64,000 bases of DNA from Hemileia vastatrix (lineage: Eukaryota > Basidiomycota > Pucciniomycetes > Pucciniales > Zaghouaniaceae): the NCBI GenBank assembly GCA_030280995.1, contig JASXTE010000007.1, positions 18,080,001 through 18,144,000 of the forward strand, written 5' to 3'. Below the pieces are notes generated by a model. The model searched no databases, had not been told where the DNA came from, and saw only the letters and a program-made list of their open reading frames with translations. The position numbers and the translations under genes are program-made. Positions 11,293 to 32,396 of this stretch are shown here, one piece after another (the first letter of the stretch is position 1; each line of letters starts with the position of its first letter).

Positions 11293-11963
11293 ATGTCCAC
11301 ATTCTTTCTTCATCCAACCACCATGTTCAACCTTCTTCCCAATTCTGCCTCTGAAATGGGTCCTTGCCAATACTGCATCGACAATAATTTAATCTGCACC
11401 ATGACACCACCTGTCCATCCATACAGAACTTCCTGCGATGTCTGCCAATCTAGAAAGAAGACCTGCCACATACCTGGTCCACTATCTTCTGCAACAGATT
11501 CACCTCCACCGCAACCTGGTCCATCTTCTGCCAGCACAAAAAGGTCTAGGCCATCCATCCTGATACCCAGATTAATCAAAAAGCTTCACCCTTCCCAGAA
11601 GAGTGCCATAACCCATAAAACAACTAGTTCCACCATCCCTGGTCCATCTTATGGTAAAGAACTTTCATTTCTCCCTTCAACTTTAAAACTGATGACTTCT
11701 CAGTTCCTCCATCTTCTGATAGTGATGATAACAATGTAGGATCCATTCCACCACCAACACAAAACCACTTGCCCACTATCAAGGCCAAGTTCCAACAACA
11801 CACATCTCAACAGAAACAACTTCTGCTTCACTACTTCCAATCCACTCCTGCTAGAGATCCACAGGACATTGAGAACAGAAGACACCTCATTCACCAGTTC
11901 AAGGCTAATTCTGAACACTTCATTTCATCTCTTGATTCCCTCTATAATTCCACTAGTACTTGA
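11293..11963 (+). pseudogene. Antisense gene 1 of element C: protein with a Cys6 zinc-cluster-like motif
   Basis: The gene lies on the plus strand, opposite to the retrotransposon, just inside the 3' LTR. The first frame, with methionines at 11293 and 11323, contains CQYCIDNNLIC, then CDVCQSRKKTC: a CX2CX6C half followed 13 residues later by CX2CX5C. The spacing resembles fungal Zn2Cys6 clusters, and a basic RKK lies in the second half. A Pro/Ser-rich linker follows. Near 11660-11690 the frame shifts; the second part has DDFSVPPSSDSDDNN and the helical PTIKAKFQQHTSQQKQ region, ending at a stop at 11961-11963. The function is unknown. DNA or RNA binding is inferred from the cysteine pattern only. 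Confidence 0.55.
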
Positions 11964-12019
11964 GTTTGATTCAGAAAGAAAAATTGACCACACCCTCTAT
12001 AAGATGTAACCACAAAACA

Positions 12020-12790: not shown

Positions 12791-12932
12791 TTGCATAAAA
12801 TAGACGCAGCCAATTTCATACAGACCACCCCTACAGCCAACCTGCTAAACTTCCACCTTCACTTCATCATCTACCCATCACTGACAAAAATCTCCTCCTA
12901 TCCCTTTCCATCATCTTTTCTCACCACAGATC

Positions 12933-14484
12933 ATGGCTGGATCTCCTGATGTTAACCCTTCTACTCCCCCTTGCTTCACTGCTCCCAAGGACTATTCCTG
13001 CAAACAGTGCATCCACATGTGCAGACCTTGCACATTCACTCTTCCAAATCCTGAATCCAAATTCTACAACAGGGCTAGTGATTCTTGCTATTCCAAAAAG
13101 AAAAGATGTGACAGAGACACCAACTACCCTATTCCTCCGCCTTCTCCTTCTCACAAATACATCTCCAGATCCCCTACCAGATCCCCAGAGATTGGTCCTT
13201 CCTCTTCCTCTTTATCTTCAGAACCTTCCAGAAGATCCAGAAGCCCAGCTTCCAGAACTCTTCCCAAAAGACCAGCCTTAGCTTCCCAAGAAACTTCTTT
13301 TATCTCTGCAAAATTTGCTCCAAAAGCTTCAAGATCAACTCCCAGGCTTCTAGACCATGTCCAGGCGGCCTGCCGGCCTCACTGGACAGTGAAAATCCGG
13401 CTCAAAATCTCCAAAAACAACCGGAAAACAGCCAAATTCCATCAATCAACGAAAACAACTCTACACAATCACCTCCCACTGCTCCCAGAGCAATGAAGCC
13501 AACTCTTCCAAGGTACAAAAACTTCAAATTTTCCCAAACTTCTAGGAGACCTGCCAGAGAACCCCAAGAAGAAACCAGAACACCCCACACTGCACCCCAG
13601 CAACAACTTCGTCCCCAACTAAGACAAAGAAACTACACCTCTCCTCTGTCAGCCAACTATTCTTCTGACAGTTCCATCTCTTCAAAAGCTCCATCCAGAA
13701 GAGATCAATCTGCTTCCAAATCACCCTCTCCTGCTCCATCTTTTAACAACCCTGGTACTCCATCACCAGCACCTCCTCCATCTGAATCCAACAGAAATAA
13801 CAACCACAACAACAACAACAATCCCACTGCTCCAACTAGACCCCAGGAACATCAGCCTCCTAGTTCACCTTCTCAAAATCTTTCAGAGAAAGACCAAGAG
13901 AATCCATATCTTTCCCTAGTTGATCCACCCACTATGACCATTACAAAATTGTCAGAGATCCAAATTCCAGCTGCTTACAAATTTGATGAGCTTCCAATCT
14001 GTAAGTACAAAATTAATTATCCCATTTCTTCAACAAAAATAATTACTGATCCAATTCTTCTTTTCTAGTTGGCACCCCTCCTCCTGAATCTATTATTGGA
14101 GTTGGCCAACCTCTTGAAACTTCTTTGACCCTGGATTATGGAGACATGAAGAAACACCTAAGCACCATGTGTTCCAACATGCTAAAAGCCTTTGCCCTCC
14201 ATGGACCTTTGAATGACTTTGAAAAATCCCTGAGAAAGCGCCTGTTGGATGACCACTGGAAAATGTCTAGGATCATTAAAAACACCCTCCAGCACTCCAT
14301 TCCTGCCTCTTCTTCTTCCTCCTCTGAACTTCCCTCTAATCCAATTCCTGACCATTACAATCCCTATAATCTTTCCAGCAGGATGCACTTCAAAGAACAC
14401 AGTGCTTCCCACAATCCCAACAAAAAACAAAAACGTCATCACCATCCGGACCAGCCTCCAGAAGCTTCATCATCCAGACAATGA
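12933..14484 (+). pseudogene. Antisense gene 2 of element C: Cys-cluster, Ser/Pro-rich protein with one intron
   Basis: The plus-strand gene starts at the ATG at 12933 (MAGSPDVNP). Residues about 28-66 hold CKQCIHMCRPC, then CYSKKKRC, a cluster similar to antisense gene 1. A long Ser/Pro/Arg-rich disordered part follows, then an Asn run. The frame changes once, near 13340, between the two main open stretches (12933-13496 and 13493 on). A GT-AG intron of 68 nt lies at 14001-14068 and joins DELPI to FGTPPPES in frame. The C-terminal exon has a helical segment (DYGDMKKHLSTMCSNMLKA), then a basic tail with a nuclear-localisation-like KKQKRHHH. The clean intron and a single frameshift suggest recent coding function. 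The role is unknown. Confidence 0.6.
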
Positions 14485-14940
14485 GCTCCTGCAAAAAGAT
14501 TAGAAACATAATAATAATATAAAACAATTAATAAAAATAATTTCAGAATTTTTTTTTTTTTTTGGTTGTATCTACCAATATACTAAAATTAAAAATTAAT
14601 AAATGAAATGAAATGAAATAAGATAAATGAAATAAAATAAAATATAAAAAATAATACAAATGGTATCCCCCAGCCAATTGATGAGCTGATCCCCTGATAC
14701 CTTACCCACATCCAAGTGCACCTTGATGTGGATACACAATTTAATCTTTTAAATGATTAACAGAAATCAAAAATCAAAAAATTTAGAAATTCAAAAGATA
14801 ATAAAAATAATGAAACACAGAAACACATGAAATAAATAATAAATAAATAAAAAAAGAAAATAGCATTGCCCGGCCAATTGATGAGCCTTTCCCCACCAAT
14901 GCTTGCCCACATCCAGGTGACCCTGATGTGGTAACACCCT
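14485..14940 (-). repeat. AT-rich spacer with two copies of the CCACATC hairpin module
   Basis: Two copies of a module of about 80 bp lie at 14667-14745 and 14865-14935. Each has GGCCAATTGATGAGC or close variants, then CCACATCCAAGTG followed by CTTGATGTGG, which folds into a short hairpin. A third copy is at 22206-22286 in element B, also upstream of the other hairpin modules. The rest is simple A/T sequence. Confidence 0.7.
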
Positions 14941-15107
14941 ACATTTTTGATTTTATAATTTTAAACAACCCCCATAAAAAATTAAAAGAAAAAAAGAGAA
15001 AAAAGAAAATAATCTAAAACTGCTATCTAGCAAAAACATAACTGCAAAATCAAAGAAATTCCAGCTCCATAGATGGTTCAGTAAGGGAAAGTCCAATCCA
15101 TAGAAAT

Positions 15108-15163
15108 GATCACTGGGTGGGCTCCCTCCAATAAGTAAAAATGATGGGAGACCACCAGTGATC
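15108..15163 (-). repeat. Hairpin module GATCACTGGGTGG / CCACCAGTGATC, copy in element C
   Basis: The left arm at 15108-15120 and the right arm at 15152-15163 pair fully apart from one bulged G. A second copy is at 22347-22402 in element B, in the same relative position. Confidence 0.7.
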
Positions 15164-15206
15164 CACCACCAATCTGAAAGAACCAAAGATAAAGAAGCCA
15201 GTCCCA

Positions 15207-15753
15207 AACCAGTTTAAAGTCATAGTGGACTTGAAACCTGAATAATAAACAACAGAACTAGAATTCAACTAGGAAAAACAAAAGACTTGAGACAGACATT
15301 CTGGGGTAACTGTTCTACAGAGCAGCCAGATCATCAATTACCCCCACACTTGCCAAAATAAAATCTAGAAGCCCCCCCTGGGTACCTTCTAACAAAAACA
15401 CAACTTCCAACGCAAAAAAAAAACCAAAACCAATAAGATTGAAGAGACCAGCACATGAAAACCAGAGGAAATTCCAGTTTAAAGTCATAGAGGACTAAAA
15501 CCTGTGAAAAGAAACCAATACTAGGGTTCAACCAAATTAAGAGAAAGGGTTGGAAACAGACAATCTGGGGTAACTGTTGATAGAGCAGACAGCCCATCAG
15601 TCACCCCTACACTTGCCAAGATAAAATCTAGAAGCCCCACCCATGGGTACCTTCAAACAAAAAAGTTTCCAACACAAAAGTTGCTCTGCAACACCACAAA
15701 AATTCCAAAACAAAAAAAGAACGTTCCATAGTTTATCCTCATTTCGGAGTCCA
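15207..15753 (-). repeat. Mixed hairpin block: three mini-hairpins and two GGGGTAACTG modules
   Basis: Mini-hairpins lie near 15210 and 15476 (loops ATAGTG and ATAGAG) and near 15729 (TTTATCCTC type). GGGGTAACTG modules lie at 15303-15344, with right arm CAATTACCCC, and at 15567-15607, with right arm CAGTCACCCC. The second right arm follows the change of ATTG to ACTG in its left arm, a compensating pair. The last mini-hairpin overlaps the 3' end of the pol frame (RNEDKL). Confidence 0.75.
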
Positions 15754-18700
15754 TCTTCTTCATGCCTAGTGCCTCTGGGATAAAACCTCTTCAATTGGTC
15801 TGAAGCCACCCTCTTTTTCAAGACTGCACCATCCAACTCTTCCAAAACATAAGAACCTCCAGACGCCTGAGATCTGACTCTTTAAGGTCCATTCCATCAG
15901 TCAGCAAACATTTTCCCCCACTGACTCTCCAAACTTCTATTATACACCAAAACCAAACAACCAGGTTTCAAGGGATTCCTGAGTCTATGAGCCAACTTCT
16001 TGTCCCAGTACCTGACTGATTGATTCCTAATCTTTATCATTCTAGAGTATGTCTTCTCTTGACATTCCTCTCTACATTCCAACTGTTGCATCCTGGCACA
16101 GAGCAAATCTTCTGTTGAGTGCACGTCATCCCAATCAATTCCAAGATAAGAGACAGCTTCCAAGTCCACTGGTAGAATGGCTTTCTGACCAAACATTAAC
16201 TCATAAGGAGAATAGCCAGTTGTCCTCTTCACAGTGACCCTATCAGCAAATAACACCAAGGGTAAATAATGCCTCCACTTTTCAGCACTATCTCCACACA
16301 TCCTCACCAAAGCATTCTTGATAACTTGATGGCCTCTTTCAACCATGCCTTCAGCTTCAGGATAATACGGTGTAGCCACTCTAACCCTAGAACCAACACT
16401 AGCCACAGCTTCTTTAAATTCGTCACCAAACTCTGGCCCACCATCAACAGTCACCAACTTCATCAACCCATACCTATAAATCCACTCCTTCTTCAAAAAC
16501 TCTGCCACATTCTTGGCAGCCACATTAACCAGAGGCACTGCCTCAACCCAACCAGACAAATCATCCCTAGCAACAATCAAGTATTTATACCTGCCCTCTT
16601 TAATATGGACAGCATCCAGACTGACCCTTCCAAAAACAGTTGATTTTCCAGTAGCACGGCCTACCTCTTTAGGTTTCAAGTGACTTCTTCTTTGACATTC
16701 ATCACAAGATTGAACCCAACCCTGCACAGCCAACTTCATACCTGGCCACCAAAATCTGTCTGCTACTCTTCTATAAGTCTCCCCAAAGCCTCTATGACCT
16801 AGGTCTTCATGCAAAGACTTCAAAACCAATTCTTGACCCTTCTTCTGAGTCACCACCACTTGAGGATTAGGATGTCTCCTTCTCATCAACCGCCTTCCTG
16901 ACACATAAAATCCAGGACTCTTCTTCTTGATTGCCAACCAAGTATCATCATCACAACTATCTGGCCTCTCCAAGGTCAACAGATATTCCACCATAATAAA
17001 ATAAAGCCCAGACTGACCCCAGGTCTCATCTTCAAAATCCAACAAAACAACATCTAAGGGTACAACTCTGTCATCAAAATCACCAGTGTGAACATGAGCC
17101 AATTGACCAGCCCAACCAGAATACCAATCCTTAAATATTGGCACGTCCTTCTCTTTTCACTGAACCTTGTGGGAATCCAGTTCTCTAACAAAAACACCCT
17201 TTTCCAATTTTGAGCTGTCCCAAACAACAACTCCATCTTCATCAACAAAAACATCCTGATCACCAGAATCAAGATCAGATCCAGCCAGTCTAGCCTCTTG
17301 GGGGAGGTCAGAAAAATCTTCAGCACCCTTTGTGCTGGCCCTAACCACTGGAACATCCCCATAAAACTCTTCAGCATCAGAATCTTCATCTGTAGGTGGC
17401 CTCCTTGATAATCCATCAGGCATAGTAAAAGTTTTACCTGGTTTGTGTACCAGGTCAAAAGAAAAATGTTGAATAAATGCCACCCACCTATTCATTGGAG
17501 CATTTGGAAGACTAGGCGTATTGATCATCTGAACCAAGGATTTTGCATCCACCTGCAGCTCAAAATGATGCCCCCACAAAACCGTCTGTAGATTCTTAAA
17601 AATTTTTGCTACACCACACAATTCCAACTTAGGTTGAGAATACCTAGATTCCACCTCATTAAACACCACAGACTCATATCTTACTGGCCTGACCCTCCCA
17701 GTCTTATCCTCCTGAGACAAAACAGCACCAGCAGCAATATAACTTGAGTCCACTGCCAGATAAATTTTTCCAGCACCAACACCATAATCCAACTTGTGAA
17801 GAAAAATATCTTCACCAACCACCTTTTTTAACTTCTGAAAAGCTTCTTCACACTCTTCAGTCACTTCTCAATCTACATCTTTTCTGGTCAACCTCCTTAA
17901 AGTTGAAGCCAACAAAGAAAAATCCTTAATAAAAATCCTGACATACACACATACACCCAAAAATCCCCTGACTTCAGTAGTATTTTTAGGCCTTGGCCAT
18001 GACTGAATTTTATTAATCTTCTTCTTCGCCATAATCCTTCCCTCTTTACATACAACATGACCCAGAATTTCCAAAGCAGGAACACAACAAAAGAATTTTG
18101 ACCCTGAAATGGTCAAACCAGCCTCTTCAATCCTAAGCAACACTCTTTCTAATGTTATTGCATATTCCCAGACAAACCTCCTTATGCCAGGGTTCTCCGC
18201 TAACACCTCATTACCATAATCAGTGGATGATTCTTTAATTCCACCATCATCAATAAAAATACCACCATGAGTAGGAACCTCATCCTGTAAAATCCAATCC
18301 ATCTGTGCTTGATAAACTGCTACTGAATTAGTTGCTCCTTGAGGCAACCTAGAGAGCTGAAATCTTCCCAAAGGAGTCTCAAAAGTTGTGAGAGGCCTTG
18401 AATCCGTATGGAGTTCCCTCTCATCATAACCACCCATAATATCACCCAAACCATAACACACCCTTCCAGCAAAAGCTTCAAAAAAATCCTTTGCATTTGG
18501 TGGCATCCCAGCATCCTTGATAGTGACTCTATTCAAGGCTCTAAGATCATGAACCACCCTCAACTTTCCATTCTGCTTTTTTACGCAGAAAAAGGGACTT
18601 GAGTAGCTGGAAGTTGATTGTTTGTATAACCCAGTCCTGAATCTTTCCCTAAAAGTCTCCACAAAATCATCTCTAATAGTGGCTGGAATCGGAATAGGTT

Positions 18701-18891
18701 TTATTTGCCAAGGTTCATGACAAACCACAGGAATCAAGTAAGGTTCCCCATAAGAGTGTTTCAATACACCCCTTTCCTCCTCAACAAACACCACAGCTTT
18801 TTCCTTTAGCACAATAATGTGCAACAAAAACTTCTTTTCTTCTTCAGACAACCACCCATCAGGACCAATTTTAGCAACTTTCAACCTTTCC
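15597..18891 (-). pseudogene. pol of element C, 3' part: RT, RNase H, integrase, GPY/F
   Basis: Reading leftward from the element B insertion: RT with YSSPFFCVKKQNGKLRVVHDL and the catalytic F-I-D-D at 18247-18258; RNase H from KIYLAVDSSYIAAGAVLSQ; integrase zinc domain HEDLGHRGFGE then CDECQ; catalytic D in VSLDAVHI, D in VTVDGGPEF and E in AEGMVERGHQ; then the GPY/F-type tail with GGSYVLEELDG. In-frame stops are few: TGA at about 17865 where B has tryptophan, TGA at 17154-17156, TGA near 15894 where B has arginine, and a TAA soon after. The pol start lies across element B at 31343-32390. Apart from these single-base changes the frame is well kept. Confidence 0.88.
17286..17309 (-). repeat. 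Mini-hairpin copy inside the pol frame of element C
   Basis: On the plus strand it reads CAGTCTAGCCTC, loop TTGGGG, then GAGGTC; CCTC pairs with GAGG. On the coding strand it gives the peptide DLPQEARLAG. Confidence 0.65.
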
Positions 18892-18896
18892 ACGGT

Positions 18897-20059
18897 ATGG
18901 TAAGGTAAACTCTTACAGTCGCCTTGCTGTAAGCAGAATCCGGAGGAGATATGTGGATTTAGCTGAAAACCACGTCCTTCCAATAAAAATAACAAAATGG
19001 GTATTCTAAATCACTAAGCTAACCAATCTACTTGGATCCGATTGATGAAAATAATGAAACTCTAAAATAATTAACGCTTATTGAGATTAAAAGAAAGTGG
19101 CTGTTGATAAAAGAAATACTGATAACAACAATTAAGGTGTACCAGTGAAAGATCTGAAAAGATTGACTTTTATGTTTTTTATAATATTTTGAATTTTTAT
19201 GAGACAGCAATAATCAAGTCCCAGAGATGAAGACCTTTCTAAAGATACCCTGTATGAAGTGTTATTTTAATTGTTGAGTAGTATTTCTAAAATGTTATAT
19301 ATAAAATATAAAGTTATAAGGGTATTACAATTTTATTTAATTTGTTGAGTAATAAAAAATGAGACCGTGGTGGTTAAAGATTATGCTGTATGATGTGTCC
19401 CCCTTTCAATTTCGAGTTTGAGAGTCGCTTAAGTATTCCTAGTCACGTGCCTAAGTTTTCCCCTCCAGAGCTCTTCCAGAGTTAATCCGGAGCCCGTACG
19501 GAGTCCGTACGGAGCCGGAACGGAGTCCGTACGGAGTCCGTACGGAGTCAAAGCGGAGTCCGTACGGAGTCGAAACGGAGTCCGTCCGGACTTCCGGACT
19601 CAATTTAGAACCTTAAAACTATAATAAAAAATCTAGAAAAATTACACATAATAGAGCTACTTCCCCTTTACATACCAAACTAATTTTCGTAGTCTGCGCA
19701 GCTCTAATTACCCCGTGAAAATTCATCAAAGTTAAGTAATTTTTGAAAACGTAAATATTTCTATAAAACTTTAAAATTCATTTAATAATATAAGAAAAAT
19801 AGTAAAAATTCTGGGAAAATTTCCCAAGGTTCTTGAGTGACTTGACTTGATACTTATAAATTTTTAAGACCGTAAAAATAAGTTTTCTCCGTAAAATAAA
19901 TTGTATTGTGTAGGCATTCGCTCGTGACCAATTTCTTCATATTTTAAACTCCAATAAATTAAATAAAACCCTTTTATAAAAATAATAACGCCAATCTTGC
20001 ACGCTTGTAATAACTCCATTTACGTACTTAGGTGCCGTACTAAACTTTAGGCTACCACA
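18897..20059 (-). repeat. 3' LTR of element B
   Basis: It is colinear with 30175-31337. On the minus strand it starts TGTGGTAGCC directly after the polypurine tract GGAGGGAGGA (20060-20069). It contains a CpG-rich minisatellite. Confidence 0.93.
19484..19602. repeat. CpG-rich minisatellite in the 3' LTR of element B
   Basis: About ten repeats of 10-12 bp based on CGGAGTCCGTA, rich in the palindrome TCCGTACGGA, stand out in an AT-rich setting. The same block is at about 30757-30880 in the partner LTR, with few CpG losses. It may be promoter-associated; that is inference. Confidence 0.8.
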
Positions 20060-20075
20060 TCCTCCCTCCAATCGA

Positions 20076-20720
20076 GAATGTCCCCATTCTTAAAACTTTG
20101 CATAAGTGGTTGAGCAATTCCAAAAAAATTATCTTTTCTAATAAAATAATTTGATAAATTTGTTTTAGCTGGTCTTCTTTTAAATCTTTATAATAAAAAC
20201 GTTCTTTCTTCTTCTCTGGCTTGATATAACATAAAATAAAATAAAATAAATCTTGTGATGATTCCACTACTGAGAGCAAGGTTTGAATCCCTTCAGACTC
20301 CCATATACCAGTCTTCCTTCTTGTCACAGCATTGAGAGAGTGGATCTTCCTATGAGCCGAATACTCCTGATTCCAACCTCATAGGGCCCCCCACTGAGCC
20401 GAATTCTATGATTCCAATCTCGCCATAAGGTCCTCCAAGCTTCACACCAAAAAAAAATGGCCTAACTATGAGGCACTAAAAAAAATCATTCCCTAAAATC
20501 CAACTACCATCCTAACTTCTGATTCCTTCATCACAATTTTCAAACTTTGCTATACAGCAAACCCATAAAATACTTTTGCCAGGCTTCCAATAATAATTTT
20601 AACTTTAGACCATGTTAAAGCGCCACAAATTTTACCTAATTAACCATTATGCTTTCTTTAGCATCATCACCACCTAAAATTTTAACCTCCTAAAGCCTAT
20701 CAGCACCCAATTCCAGAAAT
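20076..20720 (-). other. Start of the 3' region of element B, with a tandem hairpin pair
   Basis: There is no convincing gene. At 20349-20385 the arms CCTATGAG and CTCATAGG enclose inner arms GAAT and ATTC. A second, related unit at about 20394-20430 keeps the GAAT/ATTC and GAG/CTC pairs. The remainder is AT-rich. Confidence 0.55.
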
Positions 20721-20722
20721 AA

Positions 20723-21790
20723 TTGAATAACCAGTTTAGAGTCATAGTGGACAGTGATAAATTAAAAGATTGAATAGAGTTATCCAAACAAGATTGACAT
20801 TCCAGTTTAAAGTCTTGGTGGACCAAAAATATAATTGATTGCCAGTTTATGGTCTTGGTGGACCAATGATCGTTTAAGTGCATAAATATCTTGATATATT
20901 CCTAAGTAAGGCCTAGGCTTGACCAAAGATTGAATAAATTTGATAATCCAGTTTAATGTCATAGTGGACCAAACATTTGATCGACAAGTAATCCAGTATA
21001 AGGCCATAGTGGTCCAATGAATGTTGAATTATCCTGCAGATATTAATTTTCCAGTTTAAAGTCATAGTGGACTAAACAATGAATGAACTACCAGTTTAAA
21101 GTCATGGTGGACCAAACAATTAATCGATAAGAAATCCAGTTTAAGGTCATGGTGGACCCAACAGCTTGATAACAGTCCAGTTTAAGGTCTTGGTGGACCT
21201 AACATTTGATAACACTCCAGTTTAAGGTCTTGGTGGACCTAACATTTGATTTATATAAAAAAAAAAATACGTCTCCGAAAATATCCATAAAATCTTGAAA
21301 ATCCTTGAAATTCAGTTTAAAGTCTTGAAGGACTAACAGCTCCATTATAAAATCTTTAATGAAAGTCTTGAAAATTAGCCAGTTTAAAGTCTTGGAGGAC
21401 TAAAAGATCCCAAATATGTATAAAAAAACCTTAAAGAACGTCTTGAACAGTAGCCAGTTTAAAGTCTTGGAGGACTAACAGATCCAAAATACGTGTAAAA
21501 AAAACCTTAAAGAATGTCTTGAACAGAAGCCAGTTTAAAGTCTTGGAGGACTAACAGATCCAAAATACGTGTAAAAAAAACCTTAAAGAATGTCTTGAAA
21601 AGTAGCCAGTTTAAAGTCTTGGAGGACTAAAAGATCCAAAATACGTGTAAAAAAAAACCTTAAAGAATGTCTTGAAAAGTAGCCAGTTTAAAGTCTTGGA
21701 GGACTAACAGATCCAAAATACGTGTAAAAAAAAACCTTAAAGAATGTCTTGAAAAGTAGCCAGTTTAAAGTCTTGGAGGACTAACAGATG
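20723..21790 (-). repeat. Main mini-hairpin array of element B, 17 copies
   Basis: Copies begin near 20723, 20803, 20843, 20948, 20995, 21053, 21091, 21137, 21177, 21216, 21314, 21380, 21456, 21530, 21606, 21688 and 21760. The left half has AGTC-type loops ATAGTG or TTGGTG. Some have GGTC paired with GACC instead of AGTC with GACT (21177, 21216). From 21380 the copies sit in a tandem repeat with a period of about 76 bp that includes a run of A. No reading frame is kept. Variation in stems is mostly pairwise, which is what structure conservation would give. Confidence 0.88.
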
Positions 21791-21839
21791 TCTTGAAGTA
21801 AAATCCCATATGTATTGAGTTCCCCTAGACCCTGTTTCC

Positions 21840-22059
21840 TGTCTAAACTAAATGAATAAAACTAAAAAAAAAATAGAATGAAGACCGAAAAATAAAACTA
21901 AGAAATATAATAATATTTTTGATTTAGTTAATTAATTAATTAATTATTTTTTTTATTTTTTTTTATTATTTTATTTTTATTTATTATTTTATTTTATTTT
22001 TATTTTATTTTTATTTTTATTTTTATTATTATTATTATTTTTTTTTTAATTTAATTTAA

Positions 22060-22090
<31 letters not shown>

Positions 22091-22205
22091 AAATAAAAGA
22101 TTTTAGAAAAGATAGTTTTGAAATAAAAGTTAAAATTTAATTTTAAAGAAAGTTAAATAAATGTGAAAAGAAAGATAAAAAAAGTACTAAAATAAAATTT
22201 TAAAA
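21840..22205. repeat. AT-only low-complexity tract
   Basis: Long runs of TTTAT and TTAAT repeats and poly-T lie here, with no gene. It lies between the mini-hairpin array and the other hairpin modules of element B. Confidence 0.85.
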
Positions 22206-22664
22206 GATGCCCCCCGGCCATTTGATGAGCCGTACCCTCGACATCATACCCACATCCAAGTGCAACTTGATGTGGTTACACAATTTTGAGAAATTGAAAG
22301 AAAAGAAAATAAATGAAAGTTTTTAGAAGATAATTTTTATAATGATGATCACTGGGTGGGCTCCCTCCAATTCATAAAAAATGATTAGAGACCACCAGTG
22401 AGCATCACCTTTATAATAATTCATAATATATATTAAAGAAAAGAAATCACAATCTAAAATAAAAAAATCAAAAACAAAATAAAATAAAAAGAATCTTGAA
22501 TCCGGCGTTGAGAGCGGTGTCTCTTGATTCGTTCCAGTTTATAGTCTTAGTGGACTTCCTAAAATTAAAAGACAAAGCCAGGATTCAACTAGAAACAGGG
22601 AAAATTTTGGAAACGAACATTATGGGGTAATTGTGTATAGAGCAGCCAGCCCATCAATTACCCC
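22206..22664 (-). repeat. Three hairpin modules of element B in series, plus one mini-hairpin
   Basis: In plus-strand order: the GGCC-ATTTGATGAGCC / CCACATC-GATGTGG module (22206-22286); the GATCACTGGGTGG / CCACCAGTGA module (22347-22402); a mini-hairpin near 22534 (loop TTAGTG); and the GGGGTAATTG / CAATTACCCC module (22624-22664, ten paired bases). Element C has the same modules in the same order between 14667 and 15607. The shared order shows a common ancestral 3' region. The arms are kept better than the spacers. Confidence 0.75.
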
Positions 22665-22874
22665 CACACTTGCCAATATTTAATTAAGAAGGTTCCCCTG
22701 TGAACACTTCTTCCAATAAATTTTAAAATTTTTCCAAAACTATCTTCACCCATATTTTAAGAATTTTAAATTTTGAAAATTTTCAATGAAGGTTTTCTCG
22801 TATTTCGTTATGTTTCATCATAGTTTCGTCGCCCATATGCAGTGTAACGATAGTAAATTATTTGATAAAAAAAA

Positions 22875-23285
22875 GAAGATAGTTTATCCTCGTTGCGGAG
22901 GTCGTCATAAGATTTTTATAAACATCATAGTTTATCCTCATTGCGGAGTTCGTCCATATAATTTCATAAATGTCATAGTTTATCCTCATTGCGGAGGATC
23001 CATAAAATTTAAGAAGTTTCATAGTTTATCCTCATTGCAGAGGATAATAAAATTTGATAATTGTCATTAAAATTGTAGTTTATCCTCATTTCGGAGTTGA
23101 TAAAATTTAAGAAATTTCATAGTTTATCCTCATTGCGGAGGAATCCATAAAGTTTCATTGATATCATAGTTTATCCTCATTGCGGAGGATCCATAAAATT
23201 TCGTTGATATCATAGTTTATCCTCATTGCGGAGGATCCATAATATTTAAGAAATTTCATAGTTTATCCTCATTGCGGAGGAATCC
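22875..23285 (-). repeat. Mini-hairpin array of the CCTC/GAGG type, nine copies
   Basis: Copies with GTTTATCCTC, loop ATTGCG, then GAGGAT or GAGG variants lie near 22881, 22929, 22975, 23018, 23074, 23119, 23166, 23212 and 23258, spaced about 45 bp. The rightmost copy forms the last codons and stop of pol (LRNEDKL). A coding-end hairpin and the non-coding array are therefore continuous. Confidence 0.85.
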
Positions 23286-26200
23286 TTCGGCACTCCTGGT
23301 GCCTCTAGGATAGAACCGTTTCACTTGATCAGCCGCTACCCTCTTCTTCAATACTACTCCATCCAACTCTTCTAGCACATATGAACCGCCGGAAACTTGC
23401 TCCTTGATTTTATACGGTCCATTCCACCTATCTGCAAACATTTTTCCCCATTGACTTTCCAAACTCCTATTATACACCAGGACCATATCACCTGGGTTCA
23501 AAGGTTTCCTTAATCAATGTGCCAACCGCTCATCCCAATATCTAACTGATTGATTTCGGATCTTCATCATCCGTGAATATGCCTTTTCTAAATATTCTTC
23601 TTTCTTTTCTAGCTGCATCATTCTTGCACACAATAATTCTTCAGTAGTTTTGACCGTGTCCCAGTCAACTCCAAGATATGATTCAGCTTCTAAATCAACC
23701 GGTAAAACTGCTTTCTGTCCAAAAACAAGTTCATAAGGTGAAAATCCGGTCGTCCTTTTGGCAGTGATTCGATCAGCAAATAAAACTAAAGGTAAATAGT
23801 GCCTCCATTTTTCGGCACTTGTCCCACACATTTTAACTAAAGCATCCTTGATAACTTGATGCCCTCTTTCAACCATGCCTTCAGCTTCAGGATAATATGG
23901 GGTCGCTACCCTAACCTTTGATCCAACTTTCAATACGGCCTCTTTAAACTCTGTCCCAAATTCAGGACCTCCATCTACCGTCACCAACTTCATCACCCCA
24001 TACCTATATACCCAATTATTCAAAAAGAATTCTGCCACATTTTTGGCAGTTAAATTAATAAGAGGCGCTGCCTCTACCCAACCAGATAAATCATCTCTGG
24101 CCACAATTAAATATTTATACCGTCCCTCTTTTATATGAACGGCATCTAAACTAACTCTTCCAAAGAGCGTATATTCACCGGTCGCGCGTCCAGGTTCTTT
24201 TGGCCTTAAATAACTTCGTCTTTGACATTCTTCGCATGACTGAACCCACTGTTTAACAGCCATCTTCATGCCAGGCCACCAAAATCGATCAGAAATTCTT
24301 CTAAATGTTTCTCCAACGCCTCTATGCCCGAGATCTTCATGCAGTGATTTCAAAACTAATTCTTGCCCCATCTGTTGAGTTATAACTACTTGAGGATTTG
24401 GATACCTCCTCCTCATTAAACGTCGACCAGATAGGTAAAACGTAGATGACTTCCTCTTGATAGCCACCCATTCATCGTCTTCACACTCTTCTGGCCTCTC
24501 TAAAGTCAACAAATATTTGACTAACAAAAAATAAAAACCAGTCTGACCCCAGACTTCATCTTGAAAATCGATTAATATAACATCAATAGGGACTTCTCTA
24601 TCACCAATATCACCTGCACATGAATGAGCCAATAATTGTTGACCCCTAAATAAATCTTTAATCGAGCTATGTCGACGTTTTTCTTCTGAACCTTTGGATC
24701 CTTCGAAAACCGTATTTGAAAATACCTCTTTCTCTTTATCCACCTTTTTATTTAAGTTCTCTAATTCTCCAACATATACACCATTCCTTAATTTACTACT
24801 ATCCCACACTACCAATCCATTTTCCTCTACATACACCACATCTTCTTCTACCTCCTCTCTGCCGAATTTATCTACACCTTTTCCAACACCTTTATTAACA
24901 TAAAAACTATTTTCCAGTTTATCCTCTTGGTGGAGGTCATCATCATCATAATCTAAACACAATAGTCCTGCCAGTTTAACCTCATGGGGGAGGTATGGAA
25001 AATCTTCAGCTCCTTTAGTGCTGGCTTTGATAATAGGTATATCTTCATCGAACTCTTCTGAGTCTGAATCTTCTTCAGTGGGTGGTCTCCTTGATAAACC
25101 ATCTGGCATAGTAAAAGTTTTGCCAGGCTTATGAACTAAATCAAACGAAAAATGTTGAATAAAAGCTACCCATCTTGTCATGGGTGCATTCGGTAAACTT
25201 GGGGAATTAATCATCTGGATTAACGATTTCGCATCCACTTGCAACTCAAAATGTTGCCCCCACAAAATATGCTGAAGTTTCTTCAGTATTTTTGCCACAC
25301 CACATAATTCCAATTTTGGTTGAGAATATCTTGATTCGACCTCAGTAAATACTACAGATTCATACCTAACTTGCCTGATGTAACCAGCTTTATCCATCTG
25401 AGACAAAACCGCCCCAGCTGCAACCTGACTTGAATCAACTGCTAAATAAATTCTGCCAGCATCTTTTCCATAATCCAACTTGTGCAGGACTAAATCCTTC
25501 CCCACAACCTCCTTCAACTTCACAAACGCCTTCTCACACTCTTCATCCCACTCCCAGTCTGCATCCTTTCTCGTTAACCGTCTCAATGGAGCTGCCAATG
25601 AAGAAAAGTCCTTAATAAACATTCTAACATATACGCAAACGCCTAAAAACCCTCTGACTTCGGTCGTATTCTTGGGTCTTGGCCAGGACTGAATTTTGTT
25701 AACTTTCTTCTTGGACATAATCCTACCCTCTCTACATACCACATGGCCTAATATTTCTAAGGCTGGCACACAACATGAAAATTTTGAACCTGAAATAGTT
25801 AAACCAGCCTCTTCAATTCGAAACAAGATTCTTTCTAAAGTAATTGCAAACTCCCAAATGAATTTGCGTATCCCGGGATTCTCTTCCAACACCTGGTTAT
25901 CATAGTCGGTTGTTGGTCCCTTAATTCCTCCATCATCTATAAAGATTCCAGCATATTGTGGAATTTCATCTTGAAGGATCCAAGCCATCTGAGCTTGATA
26001 AACTGCAACCGAATTTGTTGCTCCTTGAGGTAATCTTGTTAACTGTAAACGTCCAAGTGGTGTATCGAATGTAGTGAGAGGTCTTGAGTCCGGATGTAAC
26101 TCTCTCTCATCATATCCACCCATAATATCTCCCAAACCATAACACACTCTCCCTGCAAATGCTTCAACAAACTCCTCAGCACTAGGCGGTATCCCAGCAT

Positions 26201-27431
26201 CCTTTATTGTAACCCTATTTAATTCCCTAAGATCATGAACAACTCTAAGCTTGCCATTTGGTTTCTTGATACAAAATACCGGACTAGAATAACTTGACGT
26301 TGATTGCTCATACAGTCCAGTGCGTATCCGTTCTCTGACAACTTCGATATAAGCTTCTTTCAATGCAGCCGGAATAGGAATCGGTTTCTGCTGCCACGGT
26401 TCATGACATACCACAGGAATCTTGTAAGGCTCCCCATAGGAATGCTTCAACACACCCCTCTCCTCTTCTTTAAAAGCAATGGCCTTCTCTCGCTTGACCA
26501 TCACATCCAACAACAACTTCTTCTCTTCTCCAGACAACCAACCATCAGGTCCAAAATTAACAACACCCAGTCTCTCAAAAGTGATTCTTGACGTCTCAGA
26601 AAATTCAGGCGGATTCTTTACCAAGGGACTTTCATAAGGATCTCTTGATAACCTTGGTCTTCTCAAAGGTGGATTTAATTCAGCAGGTAGCGGCTCATTA
26701 ATAGGTCTAACTTTATTTGCTACTTTCTTATATTTGGCTGCGTCCACATCTAAATAAACTTGAGGTAAAACATCGCCATTAAAACTCTCATCAAATGAAT
26801 CTTCTTCATTGCCAGAATCAGAATAAGAAAAATTAGAAAAATATTTTATTTCATTTTTAAATTTTACCCTTTTCTCCTTTCCCTCGTCTAATTTATAAAC
26901 AGATTTTCCAACACCTTTGCTTCCCTTATCCAACAGTAAATCACCCGTAAAGAAAGTCGGCAGTTTAACCTCTTGCTGGAGGACCGGAATTGAATTTTCA
27001 CAAAAATTATTTTTTTGAGTTTTAATTATACTGAGATTTTTTATCGGATTTTGATGTGATTTTTGCAGTTTACCCTCTTGCTGGAGGTCCAAAATAGAAG
27101 GAGATACTTGCAGTTTAACCTCTTGCTGGAGGTCTGTAAACATACCCTTCCAATTTTTATCCAACCTAATTTGGCCCATTTTGCCTTTTTCACCGTTTTT
27201 AAATTTAATAGAAAAACCGGGTAAATCCAATAAACATATAGAAAAGTCCAAAACATATTTGCACTCCAAAGTAATATTAACAGAAAATAATTGAGAATCC
27301 ACTTGAATTATCTCCAAGTGAGCTGACCTATTGCAATCTGGGATCTCATCCTGAGGAGAGATTACAACATTAGAGCGATCAGCCCCAGCTACCCCAAAAA
27401 ATGAGGGCATCCATCCTTTTCCAACAAACAT
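23256..27431 (-). CDS. pol polyprotein of element B (RT, RNase H, integrase, GPY/F)
   Basis: 1,305 codons are open from 27431 to 23514, then a TGA, then 82 more codons (23501-23256) in the same frame with the GPY/F-type tail RWNGPYKIKEQ. Approximate residues in the ORF: Lys-rich linker with LQQEVKL repeats 90-170; RT 370-560 with the catalytic F-I-D-D near 497-500; RNase H from about 660 (LAVDSSQVAAG); integrase zinc domain HEDLGHRG to CEECQ near 1040-1067; catalytic D near 1094 (SLDAVHI), D near 1151 (TVDGGPE) and E near 1187 (GMVERGHQ). Pol is in the -1 frame relative to gag, overlapping it by about 43 nt, so expression by -1 frameshifting is inferred. The one stop lies where element C has arginine, a CGA-to-TGA change. 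No chromodomain is seen. Confidence 0.93.
24915..24994 (-). repeat. Two in-frame mini-hairpins within pol of element B
   Basis: At 24915-24938 the loop is TTGGTG and at 24972-24994 it is ATGGGG; both have CCTC paired with GAGG. On the coding strand they encode DLHQEDKL and YLPHEVKL. Confidence 0.7.
26961..27134 (-). repeat. Three in-frame mini-hairpins near the start of pol of element B
   Basis: Copies at 26961-26983, 27066-27089 and 27111-27134 all have loop TTGCTG and CCTC/GAGG arms. They encode LQQEVKL, LQQEGKL and LQQEVKL. The spacing codons differ, so the hairpin unit is what recurs. Confidence 0.75.
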
Positions 27432-29997
27432 AATTCACCAGAAGTCGTCCGTTTAATATGCCGCTTCTTGGTGCAAACGCAACACTGGCACAGAGTAGTA
27501 ATCCCTGGTTGTGTTTCCCAACCTTCATCTCCAGGAGGCGCTAACCGCATATGTAACCTCCGCATATCTTCACCAGTGATCTCCAAACTAATCCCCATTC
27601 CAGCTTGATACCCTATCCTGGCCTCAAAATCCATCAAAAAAGGACCGCCAAGAACAGTTTTGACTGCTCCTCTGGCCACATAAAAGTGAACCTTACCAAC
27701 AGATCCACCAATGCCTAACCTGACATGCTCAGCTGTACCCATCAGCTCTGTTGCATGCCCTCCAATACCTCTGAGGTTTCCCCCAGTTCCACTTTTAATT
27801 GGCAAGCCTATACTCGTCGCTTGCTCCAATGAAATTAAATTAATTTGAGACCCTGAATCGACCAAGGCCTTTACTTCTTTACCATTAAGAGTTACCACCA
27901 GGTAACCCAGGGGAGCGGAAAAATGTGTATCTACATCTTCCCCAAACTTTTCAGCATTTTCACAAATATATTCCACCTCTCCAGTGGAAACCCGACGCCT
28001 CGTCAAATGCTTCTTTTGCTTTTCAGCAAGCGCCGGACTAATCGTAAATAACTCCCCCAAAGATAAGGGAATCTGCAGTTGATTCACCCTATTCAAAACT
28101 GCGTCCATCGCATTAGCTTGACCAGAAACTACTGGCCGCTCATACTGGACCTTTGATTTAACAACCTTGGCCCTGGGTACCTCTTGAGGTCCAACCGAGC
28201 CATCTTCACCCCCCATTATAACATCTTCACTTTCTATAACCCTAACTCCGTCACCAGCTTCTTGCACTAATCCTGATCCATTGCTAGTCCTTCTTACTCC
28301 CTCCATTGGGATGGGACCGCTAAAACTTGGTCTGGGTAGAGACGCCAACGGTACGTCCTCCTCAGAATCCGAATCATCCTCTGGCATAGGCTCACCATTT
28401 AAATCAAACTTGCCATAACTAGGGGGCCCCATATCAGCAATCCCCTTCTGCATTTTATATAATTTGTCCTTAGAGTAAGGGTTCAATTTGTTGGCGGCAG
28501 TTTGAGCACTAGAAATCTTGTCCTTAGAGTAAGGGTTCACTTTGTTATTGGCCTTGCCAGGATTAGCCCTCAATTGGCTCTGAATGCTACTTTTTGCCTT
28601 AGTAGCGGCTGCTCTTCTAGCAGCATTAACATCGTATTCGCCAGCCATACAGCTACCCTCCACCTGGGCAACCGTCACCAGCTCTAAACCTCCAAAAGAA
28701 GTAGAAAATGTGGCTTTACTGACCTCTTTCTCCTTGCCCTTGTCAGCTTTACCACCATTACCATTACCATTTTTACCACTCTTGGCATTAACATCTTCAT
28801 CCGTCACCTCTTCAAATCTGGCTCTTCTTTCAGCCGTTAAACTTCTTCTGACCAAATCAGAAGGAGAATGTCCATCACTGGGCTTGATGAACAAACCATC
28901 GGGAAATTTATAAACTTTACCATCGAATAAAACTCGCCCAGCATCCATATCCTTATCAAGAGCAAAACAAACTGTTGCTCTGTGCCCTCTCCTATTACAA
29001 TAGGAGCACACCTTTGGCTCATCATAGCCACCTCTATAATTACTACCACCATTCCCACCATTTCTCCCATTGCCTGGGAAGCGGTTACCGTTGTTATTGC
29101 CATTATAATTTCGACGTTCATAACCTCTAGACTGATAAGAAGTCGACGTCGACGAAGAAGCGATTGGGGCCTTATTGGCCTTCTGGGTTTCTTGAACAAA
29201 TATTTTTAATTGTTTTGTTAAATCGGCCAAGTGATCGACCATCTTATTATCTACATTGCCCTCCACTTTAGCAGCAGGTAATCCCATTTGTGCCTTCTTG
29301 GCCTCCTGGGCTTTGACCATAATATCGTTGTTTTCGGCCAAAACTTCGCTAACCTTGCTAACATATTGAGTGCATGACTCTTGATATTTGTCCAACGCCA
29401 ATAACTTGAGATGGGCCTGAATGTTCTCTTTGATAACCTCCAGAGCCGGCAGTTTCTGCTCACCATTAGGCAGTTCCTTCATCAAATCTTTTCTTGAAAG
29501 ATCCTTCAAGACGTCCATCGAATATCCCTGCTGCATGCTGACCAAAACAAATCTTTTGCTTGGTTCTCATGCACTAACTCGTCCACCAGTATAAGATATT
29601 CCACCACTTCATCAAACTGAACACAGAGCTTTTTGAAGTCAGCCATAGAAGAAACTCCACCTTTTGCTTGCCAGTCTCCAACAATTTTATTGAGGTCCAT
29701 CATAGTAAACCTAACACCCCATCTATCAACCATAGCTTTAGAAAGCTTAACCCAATCCTTGTCCTTGAATGCCTGCATAGCAATAACCTCTTTTTCCACC
29801 TCCCTATCGGCAATAAAAAATCTAACTTGCTTCACCATATCCACATGGGAAGCACCATCAACAGCAGCAGCAGCTTCATACCTGCTAATGAACCATTTAA
29901 CCTCCTCCCCATCAAACTTTGGGCCATCCCAAGAAACAATTCTAACTGAGGGAGTAAGAGGGTTAGAAGATCCAGAAGCAACAGCAGAAGAAGACAT
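27389..29997 (-). pseudogene. gag-protease of element B, one frameshift
   Basis: It starts at MSSSAVASG (29997). Capsid-like helices run to FWSACSRDI near 29512, where a one-base indel shifts the frame; the second frame continues MDVLKDLSRKDLM (about 29520) to the stop at 27389. The nucleocapsid knuckle CSYCNRRGHRATVC lies near 28970-29010, after a Gly/Asn-rich stretch. The protease has L-V-D-S-G-S (about 27849-27866) and GGPFLMDF. The C-terminus is Cys-rich (CQCCVC) just before the shift site. Comparison with element C supports the single indel. Apart from it, gag is open over about 870 codons. Confidence 0.88.
27395..27401 (-). promoter_or_regulatory. Probable -1 ribosomal frameshift site of element B
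   Basis: On the minus strand the gag frame reads CAT TTT TTG GGG TAG. The heptamer T-TTT-TTG fits the X-XXY-YYZ rule, and the -1 frame leads straight into pol. A weak stem (CTGGG with CCCAG downstream) is possible. In element C the heptamer recurs at 32403-32409 just before its gag stop. Confidence 0.65.
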
Positions 29998-30150
29998 CCC
30001 AATAAGTAATGAAAAGCGTTAACAATCGATAAAATAACAAGCCTCTTGCAGGCCAATAACAAAAATCCAATTAGAGTTCCAGAAAATAAGCCTCTTGCAA
30101 GCTAATAACGTTCTTGATCCAAGTAAGTCTTTAAAGAAAGCTAGAGAAAT

Positions 30151-30172
30151 CGAACCCCACGTTGGGCGCCAA
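30151..30172 (-). promoter_or_regulatory. Primer-binding site of element B
   Basis: On the minus strand TTGGCGCCCAACGTGGGG plus TTCG starts two bases after the LTR. The match reaches the TTCG that would pair with the T-loop of a tRNA, so a long primer match is likely. The tRNA is not identified. Confidence 0.7.
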
Positions 30173-30174
30173 CT

Positions 30175-31337
30175 ATGGTAAGGTAAACTCTTACAGTCGC
30201 CTTGCTGTAAGCAGAATCCGGAGGAGATATGTGGATTTAGCTGAAAACCCCGTCCTTCCAATAAAAATAACAAAATGGGTATTCTAAATCACTAAGCTAA
30301 CCAATCTACTTGGATCCGATTGATGAAAATAATGAAACTCTAAAATAATTAACGCTTATTGAGATTAAAAGAAAGTGGCTGTTGATAAAAGAAATACTGA
30401 TAACAACAATTAAGGTGTACCAGTGAAAGATCTGAAAAGATTGACTTTTATGTTTTTTATAATATTTTGAATTTTTATGAGACAGCAATAATCAAGTCCC
30501 AGAGATGAAGACCTTTCTAAAGATACCCTGTATGAAGTGTTATTTTAATTGTTGAGTAGTATTTCTAAAATGTTATACATAAAATATAAAGTTATAAGGG
30601 TATTACAATTTTATTTAATTTGTTGAGTAATAAAAAATGAGACCGTGGTGGTTAAAGATTAAGCTGTATGATGTGTCCCCCTTTCAATTTCGAGTTTGAG
30701 AGTCGCTTAAGTATTCCTAGTCACGTGCCTAAGTTTTCCCCTCCAGAGCTCTTCCAGAGTCAATCCGGAGCCCGTACGGAGTCCATACGGAGCCGGAACG
30801 GAGTCCGTACGGAGTCCGTACGGAGTCAAAGCGGAGTCCGTACGGAGTCGAAACGGAGTCCGTCCGGACGTCCGGACTCAATTTAGAACCTTAAAACTAT
30901 AATAAAAAATCTAGAAAAATTACACATAATAGAGCTACTTCCCCTTTACATACCAAACTAATTTTCGTAGTCTGCGCAGCTCTAATTACCCCGGGAAAAT
31001 TCATCAAAGTTAAGTAATTTTTGAAAACGTAAATATTTCTATAAAACTTTAAAATTCATTTAATAATATAAGAAAAATAGTAAAAATTCTGGGAAAATTT
31101 CCCAAGGTTCTTGAGTGACTTGACTTGATACTTATAAATTTTTAAGACCGTAAAAATAAGTTTTCTCCGTAAAATAAATTGTATTGTGTAGGCATTCGCT
31201 CGTGACCAATTTCTTCATATTTTAAACTCCAATAAATTAAATAAAACCCTTTTATAAAAATAATAACGCCAATCTTGCACGCTTGTAATAACTCCATTTA
31301 CGTACTTAGGTGCCGTACTAAACTTTAGGCTACCACA
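30175..31337 (-). repeat. 5' LTR of element B
   Basis: This is the partner of 18897-20059, with about seven differences by eye. It carries the CpG-rich CGGAGTCCGTA minisatellite at about 30757-30880 and would drive the minus-strand transcript. Confidence 0.93.
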
Positions 31338-31342
31338 ACGGT

Positions 31343-32390: not shown

Positions 32391-32396
32391 TGAGCC

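What the first reader, a model, noticed from the sequence alone, without database searches (positions are those of the whole stretch)
20723..23285. A dispersed mini-hairpin family with compensated stem changes
Seen in sequence: over fifty copies of a unit of about 26 bp in elements B and C (12020-12790, 15207-15753, 20723-21790, 22534, 22875-23285, plus copies in pol). The frame is CAGTTTA, a four-base arm, a six-base loop of WTNNNG type, and the matching arm. Arms occur as AGTC/GACT, GGTC/GACC and CCTC/GAGG. Some copies have AGTC with GACC: that is A-C on the plus strand but a G-U pair in the minus-strand transcript, which is the element's sense. Paired change with wobble on one strand suggests selection or copying of an RNA hairpin. 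I know of no named family like it; that is memory, not a search.
Basis: partly seen in the sequence, partly recalled or inferred. Interest (0 to 1): 0.88.

Follow-up and report, generated by a model that had tools for sequence, protein, structure and literature searches.

The report
Hairpin repeats in rust-fungus retrotransposons
A rust fungus's abundant retrotransposons carry many copies of one 22-letter stem-loop, always facing the same way, both inside the polymerase gene (in one reading frame) and as non-coding repeats behind it, which suggests a signal in the element's RNA, though its job is not yet shown.

Summary
The window is rust-fungus DNA with two related, nested Ty3/gypsy elements (B, C; minus strand). 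Positions 9500-36500 hold 52 copies of a 22-bp unit, (C)AGTTTA-N-arm4-loop6-arm4, all on one strand. With AGTTTA alone as detector, 40 of 41 array copies have at least 3 of 4 pairs; opposite-strand control 4 of 40. One common form occurs 15,817 times in the genome. In 20 sampled stretches units occur only with this lineage: in two Pol linkers and between integrase and the 3' LTR. Inside open frames 52 of 53 share one reading frame, [LV]xx[ED]xKL. A peptide-only search finds just CTC..GAG or GTC..GAC stems in 50 of 53 matches. At stem pair 2 all 34 recurrent hairpins pair, in two states. Three of three sampled copies of a gag-like-only element keep 15-16 units. So constraint acts on nucleotides, not only on peptide. 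The one-strand wobble claim fails: few founder sites, reversed in another family. Best guess: a redundant cis-acting RNA recognition signal; function unproven. Main rival: a slippage-grown palindromic coding repeat.

The parts
18896..31337 (-). Element C: Ty3/gypsy retrotransposon inserted in element B; LTRs 18896-20059 and 30174-31337 (about 98% alike), ACGG on both sides, PBS-like TGGCGCCCAACGTGGGG
   Evidence: exact edges, PBS and flanking ACGG read by eye
10183..35923 (-). Element B: related Ty3/gypsy element split by C; LTRs 10183-11274 and 34832-35923 (about 95% alike)
   Evidence: edges read by eye
12025..12781 (-). Element B 3' non-coding array, 15 units (mostly AGTC/GACT)
15210..15231 (-). 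unit AGTC/GACT, B 3' non-coding region
15475..15496 (-). unit AGTC/GACT, B 3' non-coding region
15729..15750 (-). unit CCTC/GAGT (pair 1 broken), just after integrase of B; in register with 23260 of the C array
17286..17307 (-). in-frame unit in B RNase H-integrase linker, peptide LPQEARL
20732..21782 (-). Element C 3' non-coding array, 16 units (AGTC/GACT, GGTC/GACC, AGTC/GACC and mismatched forms)
22535..22556 (-). unit AGTC/GACT
22880..23280 (-). Element C post-integrase array, 9 units CCTC/GAGG or GAGT; 3-7 units in six sampled close relatives
24915..24936 (-). in-frame unit, RNase H-integrase linker of C, peptide LHQEDKL
24972..24993 (-). in-frame unit, RNase H-integrase linker of C, peptide LPHEVKL
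26961..26982 (-). in-frame unit, protease-RT linker of C, peptide LQQEVKL
27066..27087 (-). in-frame unit, protease-RT linker of C, peptide LQQEGKL
27111..27132 (-). in-frame unit, protease-RT linker of C, peptide LQQEVKL
31774..31795 (-). in-frame unit, protease-RT linker of B, peptide LQHEDKL
31840..31861 (-). in-frame unit, protease-RT linker of B, peptide LQHEVKL
23514..27434 (-). Element C pol ORF (RT, RNase H, integrase) that hosts five units
27389..29566 (-). Element C gag-protease ORF with a CCHC zinc knuckle; no unit called in it

Best explanation
A 22-nt stem-loop unit (element sense: NNUC-CNNNAW-GANN-N-UAAACUG) belongs to one lineage of rust-fungus Ty3/gypsy retrotransposons. It is kept at nucleotide level in two settings: in-frame in the linkers between Pol domains, and as non-coding arrays between integrase and the 3' LTR. 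Shown by computation: the unit, its single orientation, single reading frame, sharp 22-bp edges, stem complementarity with compensated changes at the two outer pairs, and its retention in gag-like-only elements without pol. Inferred: it acts in the element's genomic RNA as a redundant cis-acting recognition signal, bound many times over by the element's own Gag nucleocapsid or by a host RNA-binding protein, to select, export or package that RNA. Copy number grows and shrinks by slippage or template switching, which selection tolerates or favours because signals are additive.
For: One orientation relative to the element in every locus examined: 52 to 0 in window 9500-36500, and L035, with two opposite elements, has units on both strands accordingly. 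Restricted to this lineage in the sample: of 20 evenly spaced 10-kb stretches 8 carry units, six with C-like gag or pol, L024 being the 3' part of a B copy and L026 a pol-less relative; the stretches with only distant gypsy elements carry none. Nucleotide constraint in coding copies: 53 ORF-embedded units, 52 in one frame; Glu is GAG in 44 of 44 and Asp GAC in 9 of 9, although GAA (66 to 48) and GAT (65 to 14) are commoner in C pol; the base before the motif is C in 43 of 44 Leu-Glu units across eight amino acids, although C-ending codons are 9% of C pol. The detector selects the last two letters of CTC/GTC, so a search by peptide alone was run: of 53 [LV]xx[ED]x[KR]L matches in sense frames, 40 are CTC..GAG and 10 GTC..GAC, with no mixed stem among these; the 3 others (TTG..GAT twice, TTA..GAG) are not units. 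CTC is 9 of 121 Leu codons in C pol and 5 of those 9 are the units. Non-coding copies keep the same letters at spacings that are not multiples of three. Pair 2 has the highest mutual information of the column pairs tested. Three of three sampled copies of a pol-less family (at least 91 copies) keep 16, 15 and 16 units between the gag-like ORF and the 3' LTR. Gag of C and of B carries a CCHC knuckle. In yeast Ty3, RNA localisation and packaging is reported to depend on UTR or POL sequences (PMC4974528, passages), where the units sit here.
Against: No transcript, structure-probing or binding data. Stems are short: -1.9 to -4.7 kcal/mol in the sense strand, z from -0.07 to -2.77 over 12 folds of both strands; antisense folds are of similar or greater strength. 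No strand preference in wobble pairs; one family points the other way. No unit was called in gag or the 5' UTR of C or in the gag frames of B, the classical place for packaging signals. The gag-like ORF of the pol-less element has no CCHC knuckle by regular expression. The same review passages say most of the Ty3 interior is dispensable when proteins are given in trans. Copies are related, so counts are not independent: column pairs that do not pair also have high mutual information (x1-y3 0.66, -2 with loop base 4 0.61, against 0.79 at pair 2 and 0.53 at pair 1), a sign of founder structure. Within the C-G class pair 1 is not better than shuffled (p 0.20), and the post-integrase unit is mismatched at pair 1 in five of five B-like loci.
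Confidence: 0.4

Rival explanations
1. A palindromic coding micro-repeat that spreads for its own sake: a 22-bp (or 33-bp) block multiplied inside retroelement RNA/cDNA by reverse-transcriptase template switching and slippage. Arms stay complementary because quasi-palindromes are corrected by template switching (recalled mechanism), not because the hairpin is selected; the in-frame sites are simply those that Pol tolerates.
For: Array size is 3, 5, 6, 6, 7, 7 and 9 among C and six close relatives; 33-bp, 46-bp and 76-bp blocks are tandem; the RNase H-integrase linker of A. psidii relatives and of L037 has no unit, as if units were gained. Template-directed correction would give compensated arms and no strand preference, as seen.
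Against: A freely inserting palindrome should land in both orientations and outside this lineage; neither was seen in the sampled loci. The AGTTTA part, loop bases 2 and 6 and third codon positions are conserved, which arm correction alone does not explain. Retention in pol-less elements is not predicted, though it could be mere descent.
Confidence: 0.3
2. [quoted passage not shown]
For: Element B has antisense ORFs (window 12885-13496 and 13112-14068, +) directly after the 12025-12781 array; the related L024 frames show Cys-rich, basic stretches.
Against: A DNA-binding site needs no compensated arms (pair 2: 34 of 34 recurrent hairpins paired, two states). Element C has no antisense ORF of 200 codons and the pol-less L026 none of 120, yet both keep arrays; units also sit inside Pol. 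Pfam gives no hit for the two antisense ORFs at E 1.
Confidence: 0.15
3. A peptide motif [LV]xx[ED]xKL selected in Pol linkers (short linear motif); the 3' arrays are decayed coding repeats.
For: 52 of 53 ORF-embedded units share one frame and a common peptide.
Against: In the 44 Leu-Glu units the codon after Glu always starts with G while its second base varies (Val, Asp, Gly, Ala); third positions are frozen, including the base before the motif (C in 43 of 44, across eight amino acids). Spacings in the 3' arrays are not multiples of three. No relative of the protease-RT linker (residues 60-260 of C pol) was found in the protein database at E 0.001.
Confidence: 0.1

Closest known systems
Retand-type plant Ty3/gypsy elements with tandem repeats and antisense ORFs between pol and the 3' LTR (PMC11963269; passages and Discussion seen)
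   Same: Long pol-3'LTR region, family-specific tandem arrays there, antisense ORFs (here in B), non-autonomous relatives; the paper says origin and function of the repeats remain unknown.
   Different: The word hairpin has 0 hits in its main text; here the same unit also lies in-frame inside Pol; fungal host; no TRP28 domain found.
Rickettsia/Wolbachia palindromic elements inserted in-frame in protein genes (seen only as described in passages of PMC2996958)
   Same: Short palindromic units as in-frame insertions, placed in non-structured segments of proteins.
   Different: Here the carrier is one retroelement lineage, one orientation and one frame, 22 bp, with non-coding arrays as well.
[quoted passage not shown] abstract and passages seen)
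   Same: Tandem repeats whose coding DNA shows dyad symmetry, in some taxa linked to mobile elements.
   Different: The PARCEL unit is 25 residues / 75 nt in ORFs of unknown function and membrane proteins; here 22 bp (11-residue period in one family) in Pol linkers.
Multiple dispersed RNA packaging signals of viruses (search listing with starts of abstracts only)
   Same: Many short stem-loops dispersed through a genome with a shared recognition motif.
   Different: Binding and assembly are not shown here; the listed cases are RNA viruses, phage MS2 and hepatitis B virus, not an LTR retrotransposon of a fungus.
Mitochondrial repetitive hairpin-forming elements of sponges (PMC2800124; abstract seen)
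   Same: Dispersed repeated hairpins proliferating in a genome.
   Different: Mitochondrial, intergenic; here nuclear, tied to one retroelement lineage and orientation.

Membership tests
Ty3/gypsy LTR retrotransposon (the carriers) | PR-RT-RNase H-integrase order with LTRs, PBS and purine tract | tested here: met
   domains; LTRs; PBS and purine tract read by eye
Retand-type pol-3'LTR tandem repeats | tandem arrays of at least 3 copies between pol and the 3' LTR | tested here: met
Retand-type pol-3'LTR tandem repeats | antisense ORF with TRP28 domain | tested here: not met
   antisense ORFs of 200+ codons exist in B only; Pfam gives no hit
Rickettsia-type palindromic elements | in-frame insertion in protein genes | tested here: met
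   52 of 53 in one frame; the peptide pattern is in none of the A. psidii proteins among the 110 hits. Insertion itself is inferred: no empty/occupied pair within one family was examined
Rickettsia-type palindromic elements | spread over many unrelated host genes | tested here: inconclusive
   only the C-like retroelement lineage in 20 sampled stretches; host genes were not surveyed
MITE or other inserting DNA palindrome | found in both orientations | tested here: not met
   single orientation relative to the element in the loci examined
MITE or other inserting DNA palindrome | target-site duplications at the unit's edges | not tested
   -
Dispersed RNA packaging signals | stem-loops with common sequence in sense RNA | tested here: met
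   by sequence and predicted folding only
Dispersed RNA packaging signals | bound by the element's capsid or nucleocapsid protein and needed for packaging | not testable with these tools
   -
Curated RNA family | match to an Rfam model at gathering score | tested here: not met
   window 9500-37000: one sub-threshold hit, MIR8024, 28.5 bits against 57.3 needed
PARCEL | 25-residue DUF285-type amphipathic repeat | tested here: not met
   Pfam scan of C pol at E 0.001 shows only retroelement domains

The most novel reading that the evidence does not exclude
A retrotransposon lineage carries a distributed, redundant code of near-identical RNA stem-loops that works in the same RNA as protein-coding and non-coding sequence, and its pol-less parasites keep only this code and a gag-like gene: the first packaging- or export-signal array of this kind in an LTR retrotransposon, with pair 2 of the stem locked to synonymous codon positions.
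Probability: 0.3. Interest if true: 0.85.

Novelty: new variant of a known kind. Interest (0 to 1): 0.62.

Why it matters
The function of tandem repeats between pol and the 3' LTR of gypsy elements is stated to be unknown (PMC11963269, Discussion). Here the repeat has a defined 22-nt hairpin core, a second home inside Pol with a fixed frame and frozen synonymous positions, and natural pol-less carriers. That makes the question of whether such repeats are RNA signals directly testable, in a lineage that puts at least 15,817 copies of one common form into a 748-Mb rust genome.

Tried and rejected
Wobble as proof of strand: rejected. Genome counts 5357 (AGTC..GACC) and 283 (GGTC..GACT) look decisive, but all but about 7 of the first 100 listed places of the former have one of two loops and many come as pairs about 289 bp apart, i.e. 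founder sites. In a second family, 81 of the first 100 of 829 listed places with T at the free base, the antisense-wobble form is 22 and the sense-wobble form 3; the pair-1 association there is p 0.008 over 81 copies but 0.35 over 28 distinct strings.

Rare arms: [GT]CTC..GAG[AC] has 68 places, among them a paired form (TCTC/GAGA) and a recurring unpaired one (GCTC/GAGA); not used as evidence. [CT]GTC..GAC[AG] has 829 places and led to the 33-bp in-frame family D (L049-L051). TGTC and CGTC with GAC give 3406 places, mostly one recurring TGTC/ATAGTG form in the first 100 listed. (other arm changes, 1114 and 3042 places) hide the last letters and were not used.

First scan used a wrong offset and missed the units; one search replaced it. 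Units elsewhere: genome contigs by protein P0001 and by pattern found none; viral contigs by protein none; 8 single-pattern viral matches were not analysed. Protein search with the protease-RT linker: none at E 0.001. Rfam: none at threshold. Literature searches behind 'not described in the held library': one paper by listing, Heterobasidion; none; unit letters, none; subscription journals are not covered.

Programmed -1 frameshifting (sense UUUAAAC in the AGTC class, heptamer recalled) was dropped: the stem lies upstream of the heptamer and those units are non-coding in the window.

Rows dropped and biases: units were selected by at least 6 of 7 features (AGTTTA, the letters T, C, loop T, loop G, G, A), so their conservation and the CTC/GTC ending are partly by selection; others (AGTTTA alone; peptide alone) are the checks. 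L001, L005 and L007 were left out as overlaps. L052 and L053 were counted apart and are not in the 268; only the 3' side of their ORFs was fetched. Two of 44 Leu-type units read TTC, and one of 53 ORF-embedded units is out of frame. L037 has one imperfect match after integrase. No tree-aware covariation test (R-scape) was available. The RNase H tree leaves D, L023, L037 and A. psidii unresolved.
Full report
What the window is. The RNase H frame at 17157-17867 (minus strand) matches Ty3/gypsy proteins of the rust fungus Austropuccinia psidii at up to 74% identity, and the genome has 747.6 Mb in 791 contigs. Two related gypsy elements lie on the minus strand. Element C (LTRs 18896-20059 and 30174-31337) sits inside element B (LTRs 10183-11274 and 34832-35923) (edges by eye). 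C has a gag-protease frame with a CCHC knuckle and a 1306-codon pol.

The unit. On the plus strand it reads (C)AGTTTA-N-NNTC-WTNNNG-GANN; the element's sense is the reverse: NNUC-CNNNAW-GANN-N-UAAACUG. Window 9500-36500 holds 52, all on one strand. Conservation is an island of 22 bp: most flanking columns have about 1.6-2.0 bits of entropy, the core near zero except the free base, the two outer stem pairs and loop bases 1 and 3-5 (with AGTTTA as the only selector). First-order Markov simulations give 0.025 exact motifs per window against 46 seen.

Where it sits. Three places in the elements: the protease-RT linker, the RNase H-integrase linker, and from just after integrase to the 3' LTR. None was called in gag or the 5' UTR of C or in the gag frames of B. 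In 20 evenly spaced 10-kb stretches of one contig, 8 carry units: L021, L023, L024, L026, L027, L028, L033, L035. Six of these hold C-like gag or pol (mostly 45-80% identical, down to about 33% in places), L024 is the 3' part of a B copy, and L026 is a pol-less element. The stretches whose only gypsy matches are distant (about 23-38%) carry none. Orientation relative to the element is constant; L035, with two opposite elements, has units on both strands accordingly.

Coding copies. Of 53 units inside open frames of at least 120 codons, 52 share one frame and give [LV]-x-x-[ED]-x-K-L, with a few departures. In element D copies (L049-L051, 56-72% to C pol) units form a 33-bp, 11-residue tandem in the RNase H-integrase linker. 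Codon choice is frozen: GAG in 44 of 44 Leu-type units, GAC in 9 of 9 Val-type units, CTC in 42 of 44 (two TTC), GTC in 9 of 9. Because the detector asks for some of these letters, a search by peptide alone was made: of 53 matches in sense frames, 49 are called units and all of those are CTC..GAG (40) or GTC..GAC (9); a 50th is an uncalled GTC..GAC copy in L051; the other three (TTG..GAT twice, TTA..GAG once) are not units. In C pol, CTC is 9 of 121 Leu codons, five of them in units; GAA is commoner than GAG (66 to 48) and GAT than GAC (65 to 14); C-ending codons are 9%. Copies are related, so these are not independent draws. Still, the base before the motif is C in 43 of 44 Leu-type units across Gly, Asp, Tyr, Val, Phe, Ile, Ser and Leu codons, which peptide selection does not ask for. 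None of the A. psidii proteins among the hits shows the peptide, and L037 has no unit in that linker.

Non-coding copies. Array spacings are not multiples of three. The post-integrase array has 9 units in C, 3, 5, 6, 6, 7 and 7 in six elements with pol 96-98% like C, and a single unit in five B-like elements. So array size changes quickly by tandem gain and loss, and most copies are not independent.

Covariation. Of 122 distinct units (268 in all), pair 2 is Watson-Crick in 107 and pair 1 in 91; the inner pairs hardly vary, partly by selection. Shuffling the 3' letters gives 58.3 and 48.3 expected. Within the G-C class, pair 1 is paired in 47 of 66 against 34.5 (p at the floor, 5e-5); within the C-G class 30 of 41 against 27.9 (p 0.20). 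Among 34 hairpins seen in at least two loci, pair 2 is paired in 34 and pair 1 in 23. Pair 2 tops the mutual-information list (0.79), but unpaired columns follow closely (0.66, 0.61), so founder structure is strong. Shuffles ignore descent. A cautious reading is a small number of compensated changes: the swap G-C/C-G at pair 2, and A-T, G-C, C-G, T-A at pair 1. At the homologous post-integrase site L023 has ACTC/GAGT, B-like elements CCTC/GAGT (broken) and C mostly CCTC/GAGG with some GAGT, a path through a mismatch. At the RNase H-integrase site D and L023 have GTC/GAC while the B+C group (support 91/96) has CTC/GAG.

Strand. Folding energies are modest: -1.9 to -4.7 kcal/mol in sense, -3.0 to -5.7 in antisense, where a U-G pair often closes the loop. 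That the sense RNA is the acting strand rests on orientation and location only.

Pol-less carriers. L026 holds a complete 5.9-kb element (LTRs 2380-3313 and 7339-8235, 92.7% alike) with one 465-codon frame whose start resembles C Gag (39% over 54 residues, E 6e-7), no pol match, and 16 units. At least 91 copies of that frame at 88-100% exist (91 scored of 15,249 first-look candidates). Two more copies from that list keep 15 and 16 units on the 3' side of the frame with no pol match of note there; their 5' sides were not fetched. An element that needs others' enzymes but keeps this array is what a cis-acting signal predicts; descent from a B-like element without selection is the alternative.

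Mechanism. Most likely a redundant RNA recognition signal for selection, export or packaging of genomic RNA (0.4). Shown: unit, frame, orientation, nucleotide constraint, partial compensation, retention without pol. Inferred: that RNA is the acting molecule and that a protein binds it. Review passages report that Ty3 RNA localisation and packaging depend on UTR or POL sequences, though most of the interior is dispensable in trans assays (PMC4974528, passages). The main rival is a palindromic coding repeat that multiplies by template switching and slippage (0.3).

Novelty. [quoted passage not shown] In-frame palindromic elements are known in bacteria (PMC2996958). Rust genomes are known to be swollen by LTR-gypsy elements (PMC12210899, abstract). 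The combination in one retroelement lineage did not turn up in the searches named: a new variant of known kinds.

Noticed in passing
P0001: A protein filed under Xanthomonas sp. A2111 is a gypsy fragment with the same linker peptide as element C up to a point (LPHEVKLAGLLCLDY): probably a bacterial record contaminated with rust DNA of this or a very close species.
   Followed up: partly
window 19488-19590 and 30757-30874: Arrays of an 11-bp near-palindrome CGGAGTCCGTA in both LTRs of element C: a second kind of palindromic repeat in the same element.
   Followed up: no
window 39089-39757: Tandem blocks of about 105-140 bp whose consensus shows by eye two long inverted repeats (AAAGTTTCTGC..GCAGAAACTTT and CCAGCCAGG..CCTGGCTGG) with differing loops.
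   Followed up: no
window 12885-13496 and 13112-14068 (+); [quoted passage not shown] no Pfam hit for the window versions. The hairpin array ends about 100 bp before the first.
   Followed up: partly
L026 (G000:C2:16750001-16760000), 2380-8235: A non-autonomous LTR element with only a gag-like ORF; at least 91 copies.
   Followed up: partly
window 37150-37448: A 19-bp tandem repeat ACCAAATTTTGCCACAGTG, about 15 copies, some 1.2 kb outside element B.
   Followed up: no
unit position -7: Seven bases before AGTTTA an A stands in 82 of 122 distinct units, an isolated conserved base outside the 22-bp core.
   Followed up: no
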